This document shows, piece after piece, positions 15,621 to 30,578 of a stretch of DNA of 43,944 bases. The stretch is from NCBI GenBank assembly GCA_002707985.1, contig PAOI01000005.1, forward strand, positions 1-43,944, in the 5' to 3' direction. The stretch comes from Sphingomonas sp. Its GTDB lineage: Bacteria > Pseudomonadota > Alphaproteobacteria > Sphingomonadales > Sphingomonadaceae. The translations under genes and the position numbers were made by a program. Each line of letters opens with the position of its first letter. Within the stretch, counting starts at the first letter, position 1. The notes under the pieces were generated by a model. It was not told the origin of the DNA, did not search any database, and saw nothing but the letters and a program-made list of their open reading frames with translations.

Positions 15621-15696
15621 TGGTGACCCCTACGGGACTCGAACCCGTGTTTTCGCCGTGAGAGGGCGACGTCCTGGACCGCTAGACGAAGGGGCC
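15621..15696 (-). tRNA. tRNA-Glu (anticodon CTC)
   Basis: The 76-nt minus-strand sequence starts GGCCCCTTCGTCTAGCGG and folds into a standard cloverleaf. The acceptor stem pairs GGCCCCT with AGGGGTC, followed by A73 and an encoded CCA. The T arm contains GGGTTCGAGTCCC. The anticodon loop is CTCTCAC, giving anticodon CTC for glutamate codon GAG. Confidence 0.95.
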
Positions 15697-22484: not shown

Positions 22485-22862
22485 GACAACGCCAGAGGGC
22501 CAGGCGACCGCGGGGCATTCCGATGCCGCGAGGAAAGTCCGGGCTCCACGAAACCACGGTGCCGGGTAACGCCCGGCGGGGGCGACCCCAGGGAAAGTGC
22601 CACAGAGAGCAACCCGCCGATGTGCCCATGGGCGCAGGCAAGGGTGAAAGGGTGCGGTAAAAGCGCACCGCGCGACCGGCAACGGGAGCGGCAGGGCAAA
22701 CCCCACCGGGAGCAAGACCGAATAGGGGCGGCGCATGGGCCTGGTTTCGGCCCGTCGCCCGGGTTGGTTGCTTGAGGCGGCGCGTGAGCGTCGCCCTAGA
22801 GGAATGGTCGCCCATCGCGTTCGCGCGAGGACAGAACCCGGCTTACAGGCCCTCTGGCATGT
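22485..22862 (+). ncRNA. rnpB: RNase P RNA, bacterial class A
   Basis: The catalytic RNA that trims tRNA 5' ends. The closing helix P1 is visible: CCAGAGGGCC at 22492-22501 pairs exactly with GGCCCTCTGG at 22848-22857. Conserved core blocks are present: GAGGAAAGTCCGGGCTCC near the 5' end, the ACAGAGAGCAA segment, and ACAGAACCCGGCTTACAGG near the 3' end. The total length of about 375 nt fits. Exact ends are approximate. No separate promoter is seen in the ~10 bp after the amidase stop. Confidence 0.95.
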
Positions 22863-26505: not shown

Positions 26506-26763
26506 TCAAAGGTCGACGCCTGCGGCAATCGCCTCGAGCTTGCGGATGCGTTCCTTGAGATCGGCGATCTCGATCCGCGATCCGGCGGTGCCCATATTGG
26601 GCTCGTCATAGACCGGCTCGCGAAGCTGCCGGTGGCTACCCAGCTCTTCCTGCTTGAGCGCCAGCCAGCCGCGCCATCCGGAAAGTCCTGCGGTTACCAG
26701 CATGGCCAGGCCGATCAGGCCGGAAGCGGCGACGGTGAGATAGATGTTGGGGTCGGTTGCCAC
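26506..26763 (-). CDS. PspB-like small membrane protein (paralogue 4, last in operon)
   Basis: The 85-residue protein has one membrane helix (VAASGLIGLAMLVTAGLSGW), a polar middle and a short C-terminal coiled coil, IADLKERIRKLEAIAAG. That coiled coil matches the core L-x-R-I-x-x-LE-x-I shared by the other small psp genes here. It lacks the trailing EIE-x-LR segment. It probably sits in the inner membrane with the coil in the cytoplasm. It is the distal gene of the psp row, 14 bp after its neighbour. Function is inferred from context only. Confidence 0.65.
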   Translation of the reverse strand: MATDPNIYLTVAASGLIGLAMLVTAGLSGWRGWLALKQEELGSHRQLREPVYDEPNMGTAGSRIEIADLKERIRKLEAIAAGVDL

Positions 26764-26777
26764 ATCGTCCTCCTGTC

Positions 26778-27053
26778 TCAGGCGTTGTCTTTGTTGCGCA
26801 GCTTTTCGATTTCCTGATCGAGCCGCATGCTGCTGTTATTGTCGGTGATGACGCGTTCCAGAACCTGGACCCGGTCCTTCAGCGTGCGGACTTCATCGCG
26901 AAGTCGGGCGTTTTCGGCGGCCGAGGCGCCATTGTCGCGATCGGCGCTATATTCGTTTCCGCGCCAGTCGCGGCGGACGCCATAGCGTGCCTGAAGAACC
27001 CTGCCGATGGTGACCACCACGACGATGGCGACGACCATTTGAAACGGATCCAT
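26778..27053 (-). CDS. PspB-like small membrane protein (paralogue 3)
   Basis: The 91-residue protein has an N-terminal membrane helix (FQMVVAIVVVVTIGRVL), a juxtamembrane RRDWRGNEY segment, and a C-terminal coiled coil (ENARLRDEVRTLKDRVQVLE, RVITDN, then DQEIEKLRNKD). The RDWRGNEY-like element also occurs in paralogue 1 (ENEWRG), suggesting duplication between these two. In PspB proteins the coil contacts PspC and PspA. It is placed 24 bp after the 39-residue peptide gene, same strand. Confidence 0.65.
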   Translation of the reverse strand: MDPFQMVVAIVVVVTIGRVLQARYGVRRDWRGNEYSADRDNGASAAENARLRDEVRTLKDRVQVLERVITDNNSSMRLDQEIEKLRNKDNA

Positions 27054-27077
27054 GTCCTTGCCTCCTTCGTGGGTTGG

Positions 27078-27197
27078 TTATTCGGCGGGGGTCAGTGCGG
27101 CTTCGCGCTCGGCGCGGCGGCGGGGGCGATCCCTGCGTTCGGTCATCCATACGCCCAGGGCGCAGAGAACTCCGATAACTCCAAATACCATAACCAT
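27078..27197 (-). CDS. 39-residue single-helix membrane peptide in the psp operon
   Basis: A short frame (ATG 27197 to TAA) encodes a hydrophobic helix VMVFGVIGVLCALGVWM followed by a strongly charged tail (TERRDRPRRRAEREAAL). The positive-inside pattern predicts the tail in the cytoplasm. GGAG lies about 13 bases upstream, so initiation may be weak; a second ATG is two codons in. It fills what would otherwise be a 169-bp gap in a tightly packed operon. Similarity to PspD (a small C-terminal psp membrane protein) is positional only. Confidence 0.55.
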   Translation of the reverse strand: MVMVFGVIGVLCALGVWMTERRDRPRRRAEREAALTPAE

Positions 27198-27222
27198 TTT
27201 CTTTACTCGCTCCCTGGCGCGT

Positions 27223-27486
27223 TCAGTTCATCGACTGGTCGCGCAATTGTTCGATTTCTTCCGCGACATCGATGCCGCGATCGGTGACGATCCGTTCCAG
27301 AACCCGGACCCGCTGTTCCAGCCGTTCGGTGTGGGCCGCATATTGGGCGGCCTTTTCGGCGGTCTTTGCGGAGATCACATCGGCCATCGCTTCCTTGTGC
27401 TTCAGCCAGCGTTCGAAGGCCGCGTATCCGATCCCGAACGCTATCGGCAGGCCGACCACGATCAGCAGAACCATTACCGTGTTCAT
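27223..27486 (-). CDS. PspB-like small membrane protein (paralogue 2)
   Basis: The 87-residue protein has a membrane helix (VMVLLIVVGLPIAFGIGYAAF), a helical linker (ISAKTAEKAAQYAAHTE), then the shared coiled coil RLEQRVRVLERIVTDRG and EEIEQLRDQ. The LPIAFGIGY pattern is close to the membrane part of true PspB (LP-x-W). Eleven bp separate it from the preceding gene. It is likely part of the same envelope-stress complex; the specific role is unknown. Confidence 0.7.
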   Translation of the reverse strand: MNTVMVLLIVVGLPIAFGIGYAAFERWLKHKEAMADVISAKTAEKAAQYAAHTERLEQRVRVLERIVTDRGIDVAEEIEQLRDQSMN

Positions 27487-27497
27487 GTCACTTCTCC

Positions 27498-27797
27498 TCA
27501 GTCTGCGTCACGCAGGGCGTCGATTTCGCGACGGGTGCGCTCTGCAGGGTCGGTGGCGATGCGTTCGAGCACTGCGATCCGCTCTTCGAGCCGGGAAATC
27601 TGGCCGGTCAGCCGGTCATTTTCCTGCGTCAGCAGCGTGATCTTGCGATCGGCGTCCGGATCCTGGCGCGACGTGGTGCCGCGCCATTCATTCTCCAGCG
27701 GATAGCCATGGCGTGCGCGGATGGCGGTGGTGAGCACCCAGCCGATCGTCGAGATCGCGATGATCGCCAGAACGAAACCCGGTCCACCCCAACTCAT
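27498..27797 (-). CDS. PspB-like small membrane protein (paralogue 1)
   Basis: The 99-residue protein has a membrane helix (FVLAIIAISTIGWVLTTAI), a basic juxtamembrane part (RARHGYPLENEWRG), and the longest coiled coil of the set: TLLTQENDRLTGQISRLEE, RIAVLERIATDPAER, then REIDALRD. The L-x-x-RI-x-VLERI-x-TD signature is nearly the same as in paralogues 2 and 3. It follows pspC by 34 bp on the same strand. Confidence 0.7.
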   Translation of the reverse strand: MSWGGPGFVLAIIAISTIGWVLTTAIRARHGYPLENEWRGTTSRQDPDADRKITLLTQENDRLTGQISRLEERIAVLERIATDPAERTRREIDALRDAD

Positions 27798-27831
27798 CTC
27801 ACTTCTCCCTGTTTGTGTCGTTGCTGCGGTT

Positions 27832-28212
27832 TCAGCGCAGGTTTTCGATTTCGTCGGCCAGGCGCGTGTTGCGGCTGGTGTAGAAGACCTCGATGTCGCT
27901 CAGGCGACGGTCGATGTCGCGGAACTTGGAGCGGACCTCGGCGGTGGAGCGCCCCGGATTGGTGCGCACGCCCTGCCAGAATTTCGCGTCTTCGGGATTG
28001 TCGTACAGGCCGTACGGCTTGGGATTGGCCATCCATGCGACTGCGAAATAGGCGATCAGCGTCCAGGGGAAGCCCCCGGCGATGGTGAGCAGGACCGCGC
28101 CGAGGCGGACCCAGGTGACTTCCACGCCGGTATAGTCGGCGATTCCCGAGCAGACGCCCGACCATTTGGCATTCTGCTTGTCGAGGTAGAATTTGGTGCG
28201 GCTGGCGGACAT
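27832..28212 (-). CDS. pspC: Envelope stress response membrane protein PspC
   Basis: The 126-residue protein has the PspC domain (KFYLDKQNAKWSGVCSGIAD, then YTGVEVTWVRLGAVLL and GGFPWTLIAYFAVAWM). A C-terminal extension with a coiled segment follows (SKFRDIDRRLSDIEVFY, then TRLADEIENLR), which resembles the tails of the small PspB-like proteins. PspC senses envelope damage in the inner membrane and, with PspB, binds PspA to free PspF. The start is set at ATG 28212, one base after the pspB stop; a longer frame overlapping pspB gives a Ser/Thr/Pro-rich shadow. Confidence 0.9.
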   Translation of the reverse strand: MSASRTKFYLDKQNAKWSGVCSGIADYTGVEVTWVRLGAVLLTIAGGFPWTLIAYFAVAWMANPKPYGLYDNPEDAKFWQGVRTNPGRSTAEVRSKFRDIDRRLSDIEVFYTSRNTRLADEIENLR

Positions 28213-28213
28213 C

Positions 28214-28489
28214 TCAATTCCTCCGGCTGTAGCTATAGGGATCGGCTTCTTCCGAAGTCGGCGCGGGAGCCGGGCGGAAATCGGGGTTGTCGGCGGCGAC
28301 GATCCGTTCGATCGTCTGAAGCCGGTCCTCGAGGCGCCGGGCCATGTAGTGCAGCTCGTCGAGCAGCTTTTCATCCTCGTTGGTGATCGTTGCTGCCTGT
28401 TTCCACTTGGTCACATAGTGCAGGATCACCCACGGCAGGCCGATGAAGAGGATGCCAAGGACGACGATCGGCAGGAACACGTCTTCCAT
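28214..28489 (-). CDS. pspB: Envelope stress response membrane protein PspB
   Basis: The 91-residue protein has an N-terminal membrane helix (LPIVVLGILFIGLPWVILHYV) and a coiled coil (LLDELHYMARRLEDRLQTIE, then RIVAADNPDFRP) that closely matches the E. coli PspB pattern, including the closing DNPDFR-like element. It adds a polar tail (SEEADPYSYSRRN). It lies 4 bp after pspA. It works with PspC as membrane sensor. Confidence 0.9.
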   Translation of the reverse strand: MEDVFLPIVVLGILFIGLPWVILHYVTKWKQAATITNEDEKLLDELHYMARRLEDRLQTIERIVAADNPDFRPAPAPTSEEADPYSYSRRN

Positions 28490-28493
28490 CGGA

Positions 28494-29162
28494 TCAGCCC
28501 TCCTTGTTCATGCGGCTCTTCAGAGCTTCCAGTTCGGCCTCGACCTTTTCGGACGAGCGCAGTTCGGCGATTTCCTCGTCGAGCGACTTGGGCTGGGCGC
28601 CCAGGCCGGCGGCATCGGCACGCCCTTCGGCGAAGTCGACCCGGCGTTCGAGCATGTCGAAGCGCGAAAAGGCTTCGGTCATGCGGCTGCCATTGGTCAT
28701 TTCGCGCATGCGGAAGCGGTTGTTGGCCGTTTCCAGGCGGGTCATGATCGAATTCTGGCGCGTGCGGGCTTCGCGCAGCTTGTTCTGCAGCTTGGCAATG
28801 TCCTCTTCCGAAGCGCGCAGCGCATCGTCGAGTACCGCAATTTCGCTTTCCAGCTGTTCGCACATATCGGCCGCCTTCTGGCGTTCGATCAGCGCTGCTT
28901 TGGCGAGATCCTCACGATCCTTCGAAAGTGCCAGCTCAGCCTTTTCGGTCCAGCTTTCCTGAAGCTTTTCCAGCTTGGCGATGTGGCGACGCATTTCCTT
29001 CTGGTCGGCGATAGTGCGGGCTGCGGAGGCGCGAACCTCGACCAGCGTTTCTTCCATCTCCAGAATGATCATGCGGATCATCTTCGCGGGGTCTTCGGCC
29101 TTGTCGAGCAGGTCGGTGACGTTCGCGGCGATGATATCGCGGGTTCGAGAAAAGATACCCAT
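28494..29162 (-). CDS. pspA: Phage shock protein A (PspA/IM30 family)
   Basis: The 222-residue protein is a nearly all-helical PspA with the N-terminal amphipathic helix GIFSRTRDIIAANVTDLLDK, the EDPAKMIRMIILEMEETLVE motif and long coiled coils. PspA binds PspF to silence the sigma54 promoter and, on stress, binds membrane and oligomerises to protect the inner membrane. It is preceded by two strong hairpins and a 35-residue gene, and divergent pspF is just beyond. Confidence 0.95.
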   Translation of the reverse strand: MGIFSRTRDIIAANVTDLLDKAEDPAKMIRMIILEMEETLVEVRASAARTIADQKEMRRHIAKLEKLQESWTEKAELALSKDREDLAKAALIERQKAADMCEQLESEIAVLDDALRASEEDIAKLQNKLREARTRQNSIMTRLETANNRFRMREMTNGSRMTEAFSRFDMLERRVDFAEGRADAAGLGAQPKSLDEEIAELRSSEKVEAELEALKSRMNKEG

Positions 29163-29264: not shown

Positions 29265-29372
29265 TCAGGCGATGGCGGGGCCGACCGAGCTCAGCATGAA
29301 GATCGCGCTGAAAACGATCGAGCAGGCAACCGCTGCGAAAGCCGTGCGATAGTTGGTGCCCTGATAAGTCAT
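29265..29372 (-). CDS. 35-residue membrane peptide, first gene after the sigma54 promoter
   Basis: The frame from ATG 29372 encodes a short polar start (MTYQGTNYRT) and one hydrophobic helix (AFAAVACSIVFSAIFMLSSV) ending GPAIA. AGGG lies about ten bases before the ATG. The predicted transcript start from the sigma54 site is about 50 bp upstream, so this is the first gene of the psp transcript. A longer frame starting at 29450 is excluded because its start lies inside the promoter. Function is unknown; a stress-induced membrane microprotein is an inference. Confidence 0.6.
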   Translation of the reverse strand: MTYQGTNYRTAFAAVACSIVFSAIFMLSSVGPAIA

Positions 29373-29434
29373 TGTCTGTATCCCTGAACCTTGGTTGTCG
29401 TTTTGCCCGTTTGCTCGGGCTTGCCCAATGCATC

Positions 29435-29449
29435 GCAGGAAGCGTGCCA
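29435..29449 (-). promoter_or_regulatory. Sigma54 (RpoN) promoter of the psp operon
   Basis: On the minus strand TGGCACGCTTCCTGC matches the -24/-12 consensus TGGCACG-N4-TTGC with one mismatch (CTGC for TTGC) and exact spacing between the GG and GC pairs. It points toward pspA and lies beside divergent pspF, which encodes the matching activator. The predicted start is near 29424. PspF binding sites should lie at about 29470-29549 but I could not define them by eye. Confidence 0.82.
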
Positions 29450-29549
29450 ATTTTGAAAACCTCGCTTTTCTGCGGGTTTTGCAGCTTGCAGGGGCATAGC
29501 GCCATTTTACGGGTTGCCAATAGTTGGTGATTTACGCCATATCTTGGCA

Positions 29550-30578
29550 GTGGAACGGATCACGCAGGTTATCGGCCAGTCGGGGGCCTTTCTCGACGCG
29601 CTTGAAAAGGCGAGCCGTGCCGCCGGGCTCGACCGCCCGGTGCTGGTGATCGGCGAGCGCGGGACCGGTAAGGAACTGGTCGCGGAGCGTCTCCATCGCC
29701 TGTCCGGACGCTGGGATCAGCCGCTCGTGGTGATGAATTGCGCTGCGCTGCCTGAGACGCTGATCGAAGCCGAATTGTTCGGGCATGAAGCCGGCGCCTT
29801 TACCGGCGCTGCCAAAGCGCGGGCAGGGCGGTTCGAGGAAGCCGACGGCGGCACCTTATTCCTCGACGAACTCGGTACCTTGTCGATGGCGGCGCAGGAC
29901 CGGTTGCTCCGCGCTGTCGAATATGGCGAGATAACCCGGATCGGCGCATCCCGCCCGATCCAGGTGGATGTGCGAATTGTCGCGGCGACCAACGAACATC
30001 TTCCCGATCGCGTGGAAAAGGGCACGTTTCGCGCCGATCTTCTCGACCGGCTGAGCTTCGAGGTTGTCACCCTGCCACCGCTGCGCGCGCGGGGAGGGGA
30101 TGTGATGATCCTCGCCGATTTCTACGGTCGTCGCATGGCGGCGGAACTGGGCTGGCTCGACTGGCCGGGGTTCGGCGAAGCCGCGGAAGCCGCGCTGCGC
30201 GGATATGACTGGCCGGGCAATGTGCGCGAACTGCGCAATGTGGTGGAACGTGCAGTCTATCGCTGGGATCTCGATGGCCCGGTCGACGCGATTCAGATCG
30301 ATCCGTTCGACTCTCCCTATCGTCCGCGCGCGTCGACCGGACCATCGCCTGTTCAGAACGCGGCATCCGGCGCGACGGCAGCGCCCACCGCCCCGGAGGT
30401 ACAGTATAGCGGCGACTTCAAGGAACAGGTTGCCCAGTTCGAACGTAGATTGTTGGCTCAGGCACTCGCCGAACAGCGGCACAATCAACGCGCGACCGCC
30501 GATGCGCTGGGGCTGACCTATGATCAGCTTCGCCACGCGCTGAAGCGTCATGAATTGCTCGGCGGCAACGCATCCTGA
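29550..30578 (+). CDS. pspF: Sigma54-dependent activator PspF
   Basis: The 342-residue protein starts directly with the AAA+ domain and has no N-terminal sensor, as in PspF. It has Walker A GERGTGKE (35-42), the sigma54-contact loop GAFTGA (82-87), Walker B LFLDELG, and GNVRELRNVVERAVY. A C-terminal Fis-type helix-turn-helix follows (RATADALGLTYDQLRHALKR). PspA binding controls it. It is divergent from the psp genes across about 180 bp holding the sigma54 promoter. The start is taken as GTG 29550 because family members begin with ME-R-x-T-Q; upstream codons to 29514 look non-coding and would overlap the control region. Confidence 0.92.
   Translation: MERITQVIGQSGAFLDALEKASRAAGLDRPVLVIGERGTGKELVAERLHRLSGRWDQPLVVMNCAALPETLIEAELFGHEAGAFTGAAKARAGRFEEADGGTLFLDELGTLSMAAQDRLLRAVEYGEITRIGASRPIQVDVRIVAATNEHLPDRVEKGTFRADLLDRLSFEVVTLPPLRARGGDVMILADFYGRRMAAELGWLDWPGFGEAAEAALRGYDWPGNVRELRNVVERAVYRWDLDGPVDAIQIDPFDSPYRPRASTGPSPVQNAASGATAAPTAPEVQYSGDFKEQVAQFERRLLAQALAEQRHNQRATADALGLTYDQLRHALKRHELLGGNAS

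What the first reader, a model, noticed from the sequence alone, without database searches (positions are those of the whole stretch)
26506..29162. Expanded psp operon: a serial array of small PspB-like membrane proteins after pspABC
Seen: after pspA, pspB and pspC, five more small same-strand genes (85, 91, 39, 87 and 99 codons) follow with 11-34 bp gaps. Four have one N-terminal membrane helix plus a C-terminal coil. Known: PspB is a small helix-plus-coil sensor partner of PspC, and most psp loci carry only one pspB. Inference: the paralogues may form a graded or combinatorial membrane sensor, or alternative PspA docking sites.
Basis: partly seen in the sequence, partly recalled or inferred. 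Interest (0 to 1): 0.75.

Follow-up and report, generated by a model that had tools for sequence, protein, structure and literature searches.

The report
Array of spare PspB/PspC tails
In Sphingomonas and its relatives the membrane-stress (psp) operon carries a conserved row of extra small membrane proteins, most of whose end segments match those of the sensor proteins PspB and PspC, and these are predicted to act as additional docking sites for the membrane-repair protein PspA.

Summary
In detail: after pspA, pspB and pspC, five small genes (99, 87, 39, 91, 85 codons; X1-X5) follow on the same strand, 11-34 bp apart. It is not chance: X5 plus at least two coil paralogues occur in 76 of 76 named loci long enough to judge, and all 163 genomes of the window's family in one draw carry the coil family (149 with three or more copies). 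"PspB paralogues" is only partly right: none of the window's five reaches a PspB or PspC cut-off, and the PspB membrane motif is missing. X1, X1b (absent here), X2 and X4 share a tail that matches both the PspB coil and the PspC C-terminus; shuffled coils do not. X5 is remote; X3 has no coil. Family genomes without PspC mostly lack X (9 of 10); one genome has lost pspB and the PspC tail but keeps two X genes. Against a purely Psp role, relatives elsewhere lie outside psp operons. Best reading: likely membrane-anchored PspC-like tails working in trans to dock PspA. Docking is untested. In print I found one line on PspB duplicates. New variant of a known system.

The parts
29434..29449 (-). sigma-54-type promoter site TGGCACGCTTCCTGCG, upstream of P0 and pspA
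   Evidence: 10 of 12 consensus positions; a site of 10 or more within 700 bp before pspA in 81 of 81 loci, against 8 of 327 random windows and 6 of 77 operon interiors
29265..29372 (-). P0, 35-codon hydrophobic peptide between promoter and pspA
   Evidence: P0-like ORF in 57 of 81 loci; role unknown
28494..29162 (-). pspA
   Evidence: TIGR02977 281 bits, cut-off 242.95
28214..28489 (-). pspB, the one canonical copy
   Evidence: TIGR02976 82.3 bits, cut-off 51.7; the only PF06667 match in the genome
27832..28212 (-). pspC
   Evidence: TIGR02978 119.4 bits, cut-off 104
27498..27797 (-). X1, 99 codons: membrane helix, linker, long coil ending in the shared tail
   Evidence: AlphaFold2 helices 5-30 and 47-98, mean pLDDT 81
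27223..27486 (-). X2, 87 codons: membrane helix and shared tail
   Evidence: 18.2 bits to PspB and 17.6 bits to the PspC tail, both below cut-off
27078..27197 (-). X3, 39 codons: membrane helix and basic end, no coil
   Evidence: orthologues in 32 of 76 named loci; dN/dS 0.34-0.57 in five pairs
26778..27053 (-). X4, 91 codons: membrane helix and shared tail
   Evidence: 61 of 76 named loci
26506..26763 (-). X5, 85 codons (GTG start): membrane helix and its own conserved tail (LKERIRKLEAIAAGVDL)
   Evidence: 76 of 76 named loci; profile related to the X1/X2/X4 family, 0/60 and 0/60 shuffles as high
29514..30578 (+). pspF, divergent activator (first start codon of the ORF, TTG; true start not settled)
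   Evidence: TIGR02974 475 bits, cut-off 443.55

Best explanation
X1, X2 and X4 (and, more remotely, X5) encode one-helix membrane proteins whose C-terminal segment matches the PspB coil and the PspC tail (X5 only through the other X proteins), and they likely act as extra membrane-bound docking tails through which the Psp hub captures PspA and frees PspF. Shown by sequence: the ordered array, the shared tail, old separate paralogue lineages, one sigma-54-type site ahead of the block, and absence from most family genomes that lack PspC. Inferred: tails on the cytoplasmic side (from the charge pattern), one transcript, coil pairing with PspB or PspC, binding of PspA. Proposed working: membrane stress frees PspF, the block is made together with PspA, and the added tails hold the new PspA at the membrane, so docking capacity rises with PspA supply; the differing membrane helices and linkers would let each paralogue answer another membrane state or pair with another partner.
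For: Against 18,950 NCBIfam models the two most often matched by 33 family members are PspC (25) and PspB (20). The clade's own PspC profile matches X tails at E<1e-3 in X1b 60/60, X4 34/63, X2 33/68, X1 2/78; the PspB profile in 0/60, 12/63, 19/68, 11/78; heptad-phase-shuffled tails none. Profile comparison: X with the PspC tail over 36 columns, 0/60 and 0/60 shuffles as high; X with PspB over 17 columns, 0/60 and 1/60. In a draw of 149 family genomes 10 lack PspC, and 9 of those lack X. In genome G053 the operon is pspA, an 88-aa tail-less pspC, an X2-type and an X4-type gene, with no pspB in the genome. In four of four f8 loci a tail-less PspC ORF (75-84 aa) precedes the X gene. Outside the family, 14 of 14 X-bearing genomes of the phylum draw have PspB (29 of 286 do overall). 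In E. coli the PspC C-terminal part is needed for PspA contact and induction (PMC3068692, passages); [quoted passage not shown]
Against: No interaction, expression or mutant data for any X gene. The matched segment is short (17-36 columns) and coils resemble coils; in Pfam a bZIP coil model is matched as often as PspB (12 of 33 each). X5 and X3 do not match PspB or PspC. Relatives in other classes lie outside psp operons, and seven other Sphingomonadales genomes with a match have no X gene on or around the psp stretch read, so a Psp-independent role of the family is possible. f8 keeps a full PspC besides the tail-less one. PspC topology in E. coli is disputed in the papers themselves. The PspC model was poor (pLDDT 58). 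PspB and PspC profiles are not clearly related to each other here (4/60 and 6/60 shuffles).
Confidence: 0.45

Rival explanations
1. The X tails are antagonists: they pair with PspB or PspC, occupy the coil, and keep the hub silent or switch it off after induction.
For: The same sequence match predicts coil pairing of either sign, and induction together with pspA (one sigma-54-type site) would suit feedback. A paper title (Flores-Kim and Darwin 2016, seen only in a reference list) says PspB-PspC cytoplasmic contacts silence the response.
Against: In G053 pspB and the PspC tail are gone while X2- and X4-type genes remain, which leaves no PspB or PspC tail to silence.
Confidence: 0.2
2. They are redundant PspB duplicates that only raise dosage.
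For: PspB-like size and topology. Real PspB duplicates exist: a second PspB-type gene in G058, two adjacent PspB genes in G830, and one line in Ravi et al. 2024.
Against: None of the window's five reaches the PspB cut-off; the PspB membrane motif is absent; X1/X1b, X2 and X4 are separate old lineages.
Confidence: 0.15
3. They are effectors that work on the membrane or other partners and are merely carried in the psp regulon.
For: Relatives in other classes lie outside psp operons and none was found near psp in seven other Sphingomonadales genomes. X3 is a bare helix and X5 has its own tail.
Against: Absent from 9 of 10 PspC-less family genomes; outside the family only in PspB-bearing genomes in the phylum draw.
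Confidence: 0.2

Closest known systems
PspB (PF06667, TIGR02976)
   Same: Size, one N-terminal helix followed by K/R residues, C-terminal coil with an R-x4-ER-type core; same operon
   Different: Below the cut-offs; lacks the PspB membrane motif (G-x-PW-x3-HY) and its E-D-E block; ends in a PspC-like segment
PspC C-terminal tail (TIGR02978)
   Same: Last about 36 residues align through the final LR
   Different: No PspC domain (PF04024); the tail sits on a separate one-helix anchor, in several versions
PspB duplicates and PspC-PspB fusions of Ravi et al. 2024 (PMC11237479, section 17)
   Same: Extra PspB-type modules in psp operons
   Different: There a phrase each; an ordered, family-wide array of diverged lineages is not described in the parts I read (passages and section 17; supplements not read)
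PspD/PspG of enterobacteria
   Same: Small extra members of the PspF regulon (PspG from papers)
   Different: E. coli PspD (read from L206) shows no X-type tail by eye; PspG was not compared

Membership tests
PspB | Score over curated cut-off (PF06667 25.6 bits, TIGR02976 51.7 bits) | tested here: not met
   Window X genes: best 14.9 bits (Pfam) and 18.2 bits (NCBIfam)
PspB | Membrane motif invariant in the clade's PspB (G17, P19, W20, H24, Y25, T27, W29) and E38-D39-E40 | tested here: not met
   Invariant in 15 PspB; the invariant X positions are seven, all in the tail
PspB | One helix, positive residues after it, C-terminal coil | tested here: met
   More K/R after than before the helix in X1 77/78, X1b 59/60, X2 68/68, X4 63/63, X5 78/78; a prediction of topology
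PspC | PspC domain PF04024 | tested here: not met
   No match in X1-X5
PspC | C-terminal tail sequence | tested here: met
   for X1, X1b, X2 and X4 (X1 weakly, 2/78); not met for X5 (0/78)
PspB or PspC | Contact with PspA or with each other | not testable with these tools
   No complex prediction or interaction data
PspF regulon | sigma-54 promoter and same-strand gene block | tested here: met
   co-transcription itself not tested; no minus-strand terminator-like site between pspA and X5

The most novel reading that the evidence does not exclude
Sphingomonad bacteria have taken the PspA-capturing tail of PspC off PspC, put it on a set of separate one-helix anchors, and kept several diverged versions side by side, so that PspA is docked by a combinatorial panel of membrane tails; in at least one lineage the panel has replaced PspB and the PspC tail altogether.
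Probability: 0.35. Interest if true: 0.75.

Novelty: new variant of a known kind. Interest (0 to 1): 0.6.

Why it matters
How PspB and PspC sense damage and hand PspA over is still open. A family that displays the presumed PspA-capturing segment on several different membrane anchors, and one lineage that kept only those, would separate the docking tail from the sensing domain and make each step testable. It would also give a Psp link to proteins that the listed database hits mostly call hypothetical protein, and sometimes Ctf8, YlxW, FtsB, thioredoxin reductase or Phage shock protein B (top 120 of each).

Tried and rejected
Ordinary PspB duplicates: rejected as the filing, since cut-offs and membrane motif are not met. 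Known solved structure: the PspC and X profiles find no Psp chain in the PDB, only chance-type (mostly coil) matches. Defence systems: PADLOC matches of the five proteins scanned are weak. X5 as direct PspB kin: not supported. PspC model too poor to compare tails. PspC tails score higher against the X profile inside the family (median 17.4 bits, n=81) than outside (11.0, n=15), but the query comes from the same family and PspB goes the other way (16.7 against 19.4), so I do not lean on it. At first I took the order survey's matches outside the family for PspB and PspC themselves; on checking, several are too strong for that (E down to 1e-16), and no X gene was found on the psp contigs or within about 100 kb in seven of those genomes, so they are probably unlinked X-like genes whose places one search did not list. 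For this I lowered two odds slightly (0.5 to 0.45 and 0.4 to 0.35). One search stopped half way on a key error; the printed part was used. No fold search was run, since one helix plus a coil would match widely.
Full report
What is there. On the minus strand the window holds a psp operon: a sigma-54-type site (29434-29449), a 35-codon hydrophobic ORF (P0), pspA, pspB, pspC and five further small genes, X1 to X5 in order of transcription, then a sufE-like gene 90 bp on. pspF is divergent. pspA, pspB, pspC and pspF pass their NCBIfam cut-offs.

Is it real. Eighty named loci, the closest PspA relatives, were fetched. Of these, 76 hold at least 2.6 kb after pspA; four short ones (L050, L087, L090, L110) were dropped from the counts. 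In 76 of 76, X5 is present together with two to five genes of the coil family (2 in 6 loci, 3 in 37, 4 in 29, 5 in 4). X1 is in 71, X1b (a further member, absent from the window) in 55, X2 in 67, X3 in 32, X4 in 61. The loci are mostly Sphingomonas, with Sphingobium, Stakelama and Hephaestia. dN/dS is below 1 in every pair computed, for every gene. A sigma-54-type site of 10 or more of 12 positions lies within 700 bp before pspA in 81 of 81 loci (80 named plus the window), against 8 of 327 random windows and 6 of 77 operon interiors. No terminator-like site lies on the minus strand between pspA and X5, though the scan as a whole finds no more sites than shuffles do.

How far it reaches. A profile of X1, X1b, X2 and X4 (A1) matched 221 of 246 genomes of the order: 163 of 163 of the window's family f1 and 58 of 83 of other families. 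In f1 there are 1 to 7 matches a genome, three or more in 149 of 163 (transcribed); these are genome-wide counts and a few lie outside psp (for example G030:C6). Of 19 psp loci read in other families of the order, the 4 of family f8 hold one X gene; the 15 of f2, f3, f5, f6 and f7 have pspABC and no X gene, one of them (G058) with a PspB-type duplicate. Some genomes of those families nevertheless have one strong A1 match (E down to about 1e-16). It is not near psp: G009, G001 and G014 were read over the whole psp contig, G007 and G022 over nearly all of it, G004 and G034 over about 100 kb each side, and the only A1 matches were PspB and PspC themselves. In the class draw 25 of 385 matched, strongly only f1 and one other genome, G426, with two X-like genes away from psp. 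In the phylum draw 31 of 299 matched: 13 are f1, 14 others match at E<=1e-7, and 4 weak matches in long frames were not counted. For those 14, 17 stretches of about 6-7 kb were read, and no PspA, PspB or PspC gene lies near the X-like ones. X5 was found in 4 of 289 class genomes, all f1. That f1 is the family of Sphingomonas is my inference from the named loci; codes cannot be matched to names.

What the proteins are. X proteins have one hydrophobic helix followed by K/R residues, as PspB has, so the C-terminus is predicted to be cytoplasmic. The model of X1 is helix 5-30 and helix 47-98 at mean pLDDT 81. Among 33 coil-family members seven positions are invariant, all in the tail. None of the window's five reaches a PspB or PspC cut-off. 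Yet against 18,950 NCBIfam models the two most often matched by the 33 members (E up to 1) are PspC (25) and PspB (20); in Pfam PspB ties with a bZIP coil model at 12 each, a reminder that coils match coils. The clade's own PspC profile matches the tails of X1b 60/60, X4 34/63, X2 33/68, X1 2/78 and X5 0/78 at E<1e-3; its PspB profile 0/60, 12/63, 19/68, 11/78 and 0/78; after shuffling within heptad phases none at that threshold. Profile comparison with tail and heptad-block shuffles agrees for X with PspC (0/60, 0/60), X with PspB (0/60, 1/60) and X5 with X (0/60, 0/60), fails for X5 with PspB or PspC, and is weak for PspB with PspC (4/60, 6/60).

History. In a tree of 154 rows (102 columns, quick method, 77 of 151 inner branches unresolved) X4 rows from several genera share a starred branch (95), X1 and X1b another (96), X1b 89, X2 91; some rows of other f1 genera fall outside these groups. 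The main paralogues are thus older than the genera and have been kept apart. In family f8 a PspC-domain ORF of 75-84 aa with no tail directly precedes the X gene in 4 of 4 loci, besides a full PspC. In f1 genome G053 the operon is pspA, an 88-aa PspC without a tail, then an X2-type and an X4-type gene; the gaps pspA-pspC and pspC-X are 3 and 8 bp, so neither pspB nor a tail fits between. That genome has one PspC domain and no PspB match. In a draw of 149 f1 genomes 137 have a PspC over cut-off, G053 and G942 are below it, and 10 have none. Of those 10, 9 have no X; the tenth, a 66%-complete assembly, has five matches. G942 (660 contigs) has none; three PspC-bearing genomes searched beside them all have X.

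Link to Psp outside the family. In the phylum draw 29 of 286 non-f1 genomes have PspB over cut-off and 14 have X at E<=1e-7; all 14 are among the 29 (1.4 expected; hypergeometric 3.8e-16, not corrected for common ancestry). By family, X is in 5 of 8 PspB-bearing families (f153, f193, f206, f228, f229; not f44, f163, f202). All 14 also have PspA.

Mechanism. In E. coli the C-terminal part of PspC with its leucine-zipper motif is needed for PspA interaction and induction, together with PspB (PMC3068692, abstract and passages). [quoted passage not shown] The E. coli paper discusses a periplasmic or dual placing of that domain, so topology is not settled. A family that carries a PspC-like tail on separate anchors, sits behind the same sigma-54-type site, is missing where PspC is missing, and in one lineage remains where PspB and the PspC tail are gone, most likely supplies such tails in trans. 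That step is inference. A silencing coil, plain dosage, and an unrelated effector role remain open and are given as rivals.

Known work. Ravi et al. 2024 (PMC11237479; passages and section 17 read) mention PspB duplicates in the operon and a PspC-PspB fusion, a phrase each. Popp et al. 2022 (PMC9239133, passages) has no hit for Sphingo or Alphaproteobacteria. My searches (listings seen) showed no description of this array; supplements and most subscription papers were not searchable. In Zymomonas mobilis, a sphingomonad (recalled), psp genes rise with ethanol (PMC3495753, passages) and in xylose medium, there including ZMO1062 between pspF and pspA, called pspD (PMC8645129, passages); that is the position of P0 here, but I did not compare the sequences.

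Noticed in passing
window 29265-29372 (-): P0, a 35-codon hydrophobic peptide between the sigma-54-type site and pspA; similar ORFs in 57 of 81 loci. Its position fits ZMO1062 of Zymomonas, called pspD in one paper.
   Followed up: partly
L207 3122-3907 (genome G053): psp operon with no pspB and an 88-aa PspC without a C-terminal tail, followed by an X2-type and an X4-type gene.
   Followed up: partly
L147 2865-3402, L154 2971-3544, L155 2960-3508, L159 2893-3443: Family f8: a stand-alone tail-less PspC-domain ORF (75-84 aa) directly before a single X gene, as if PspC were split in two.
   Followed up: partly
L161 (G426) and L202 (G818): Two X-like genes (about 76-79 and 64 aa) side by side, in G426 beside dut- and coaBC-like genes (names by eye) and away from psp, in another family of the class.
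   Followed up: no
G830:C1:1117368-1117807: Two adjacent PspB genes, both over the Pfam cut-off.
   Followed up: no
genomes of families f2, f5, f6, f7 (for example G009, G007, G004): One strong match to the X profile (E about 1e-13 to 1e-16) that is not on the psp stretch read; place unknown.
   Followed up: partly
window 27498-27797 (-): An X1 orthologue in Sphingomonas donggukensis is named 'Ctf8 family protein' in a public source, apparently from a sub-threshold coil match (Pfam Ctf8 17.8 bits, cut-off 22).
   Followed up: no
window 22492-22861 (+) and 15624-15696 (-): RNase P RNA (class A, full length) and a tRNA gene.
   Followed up: no
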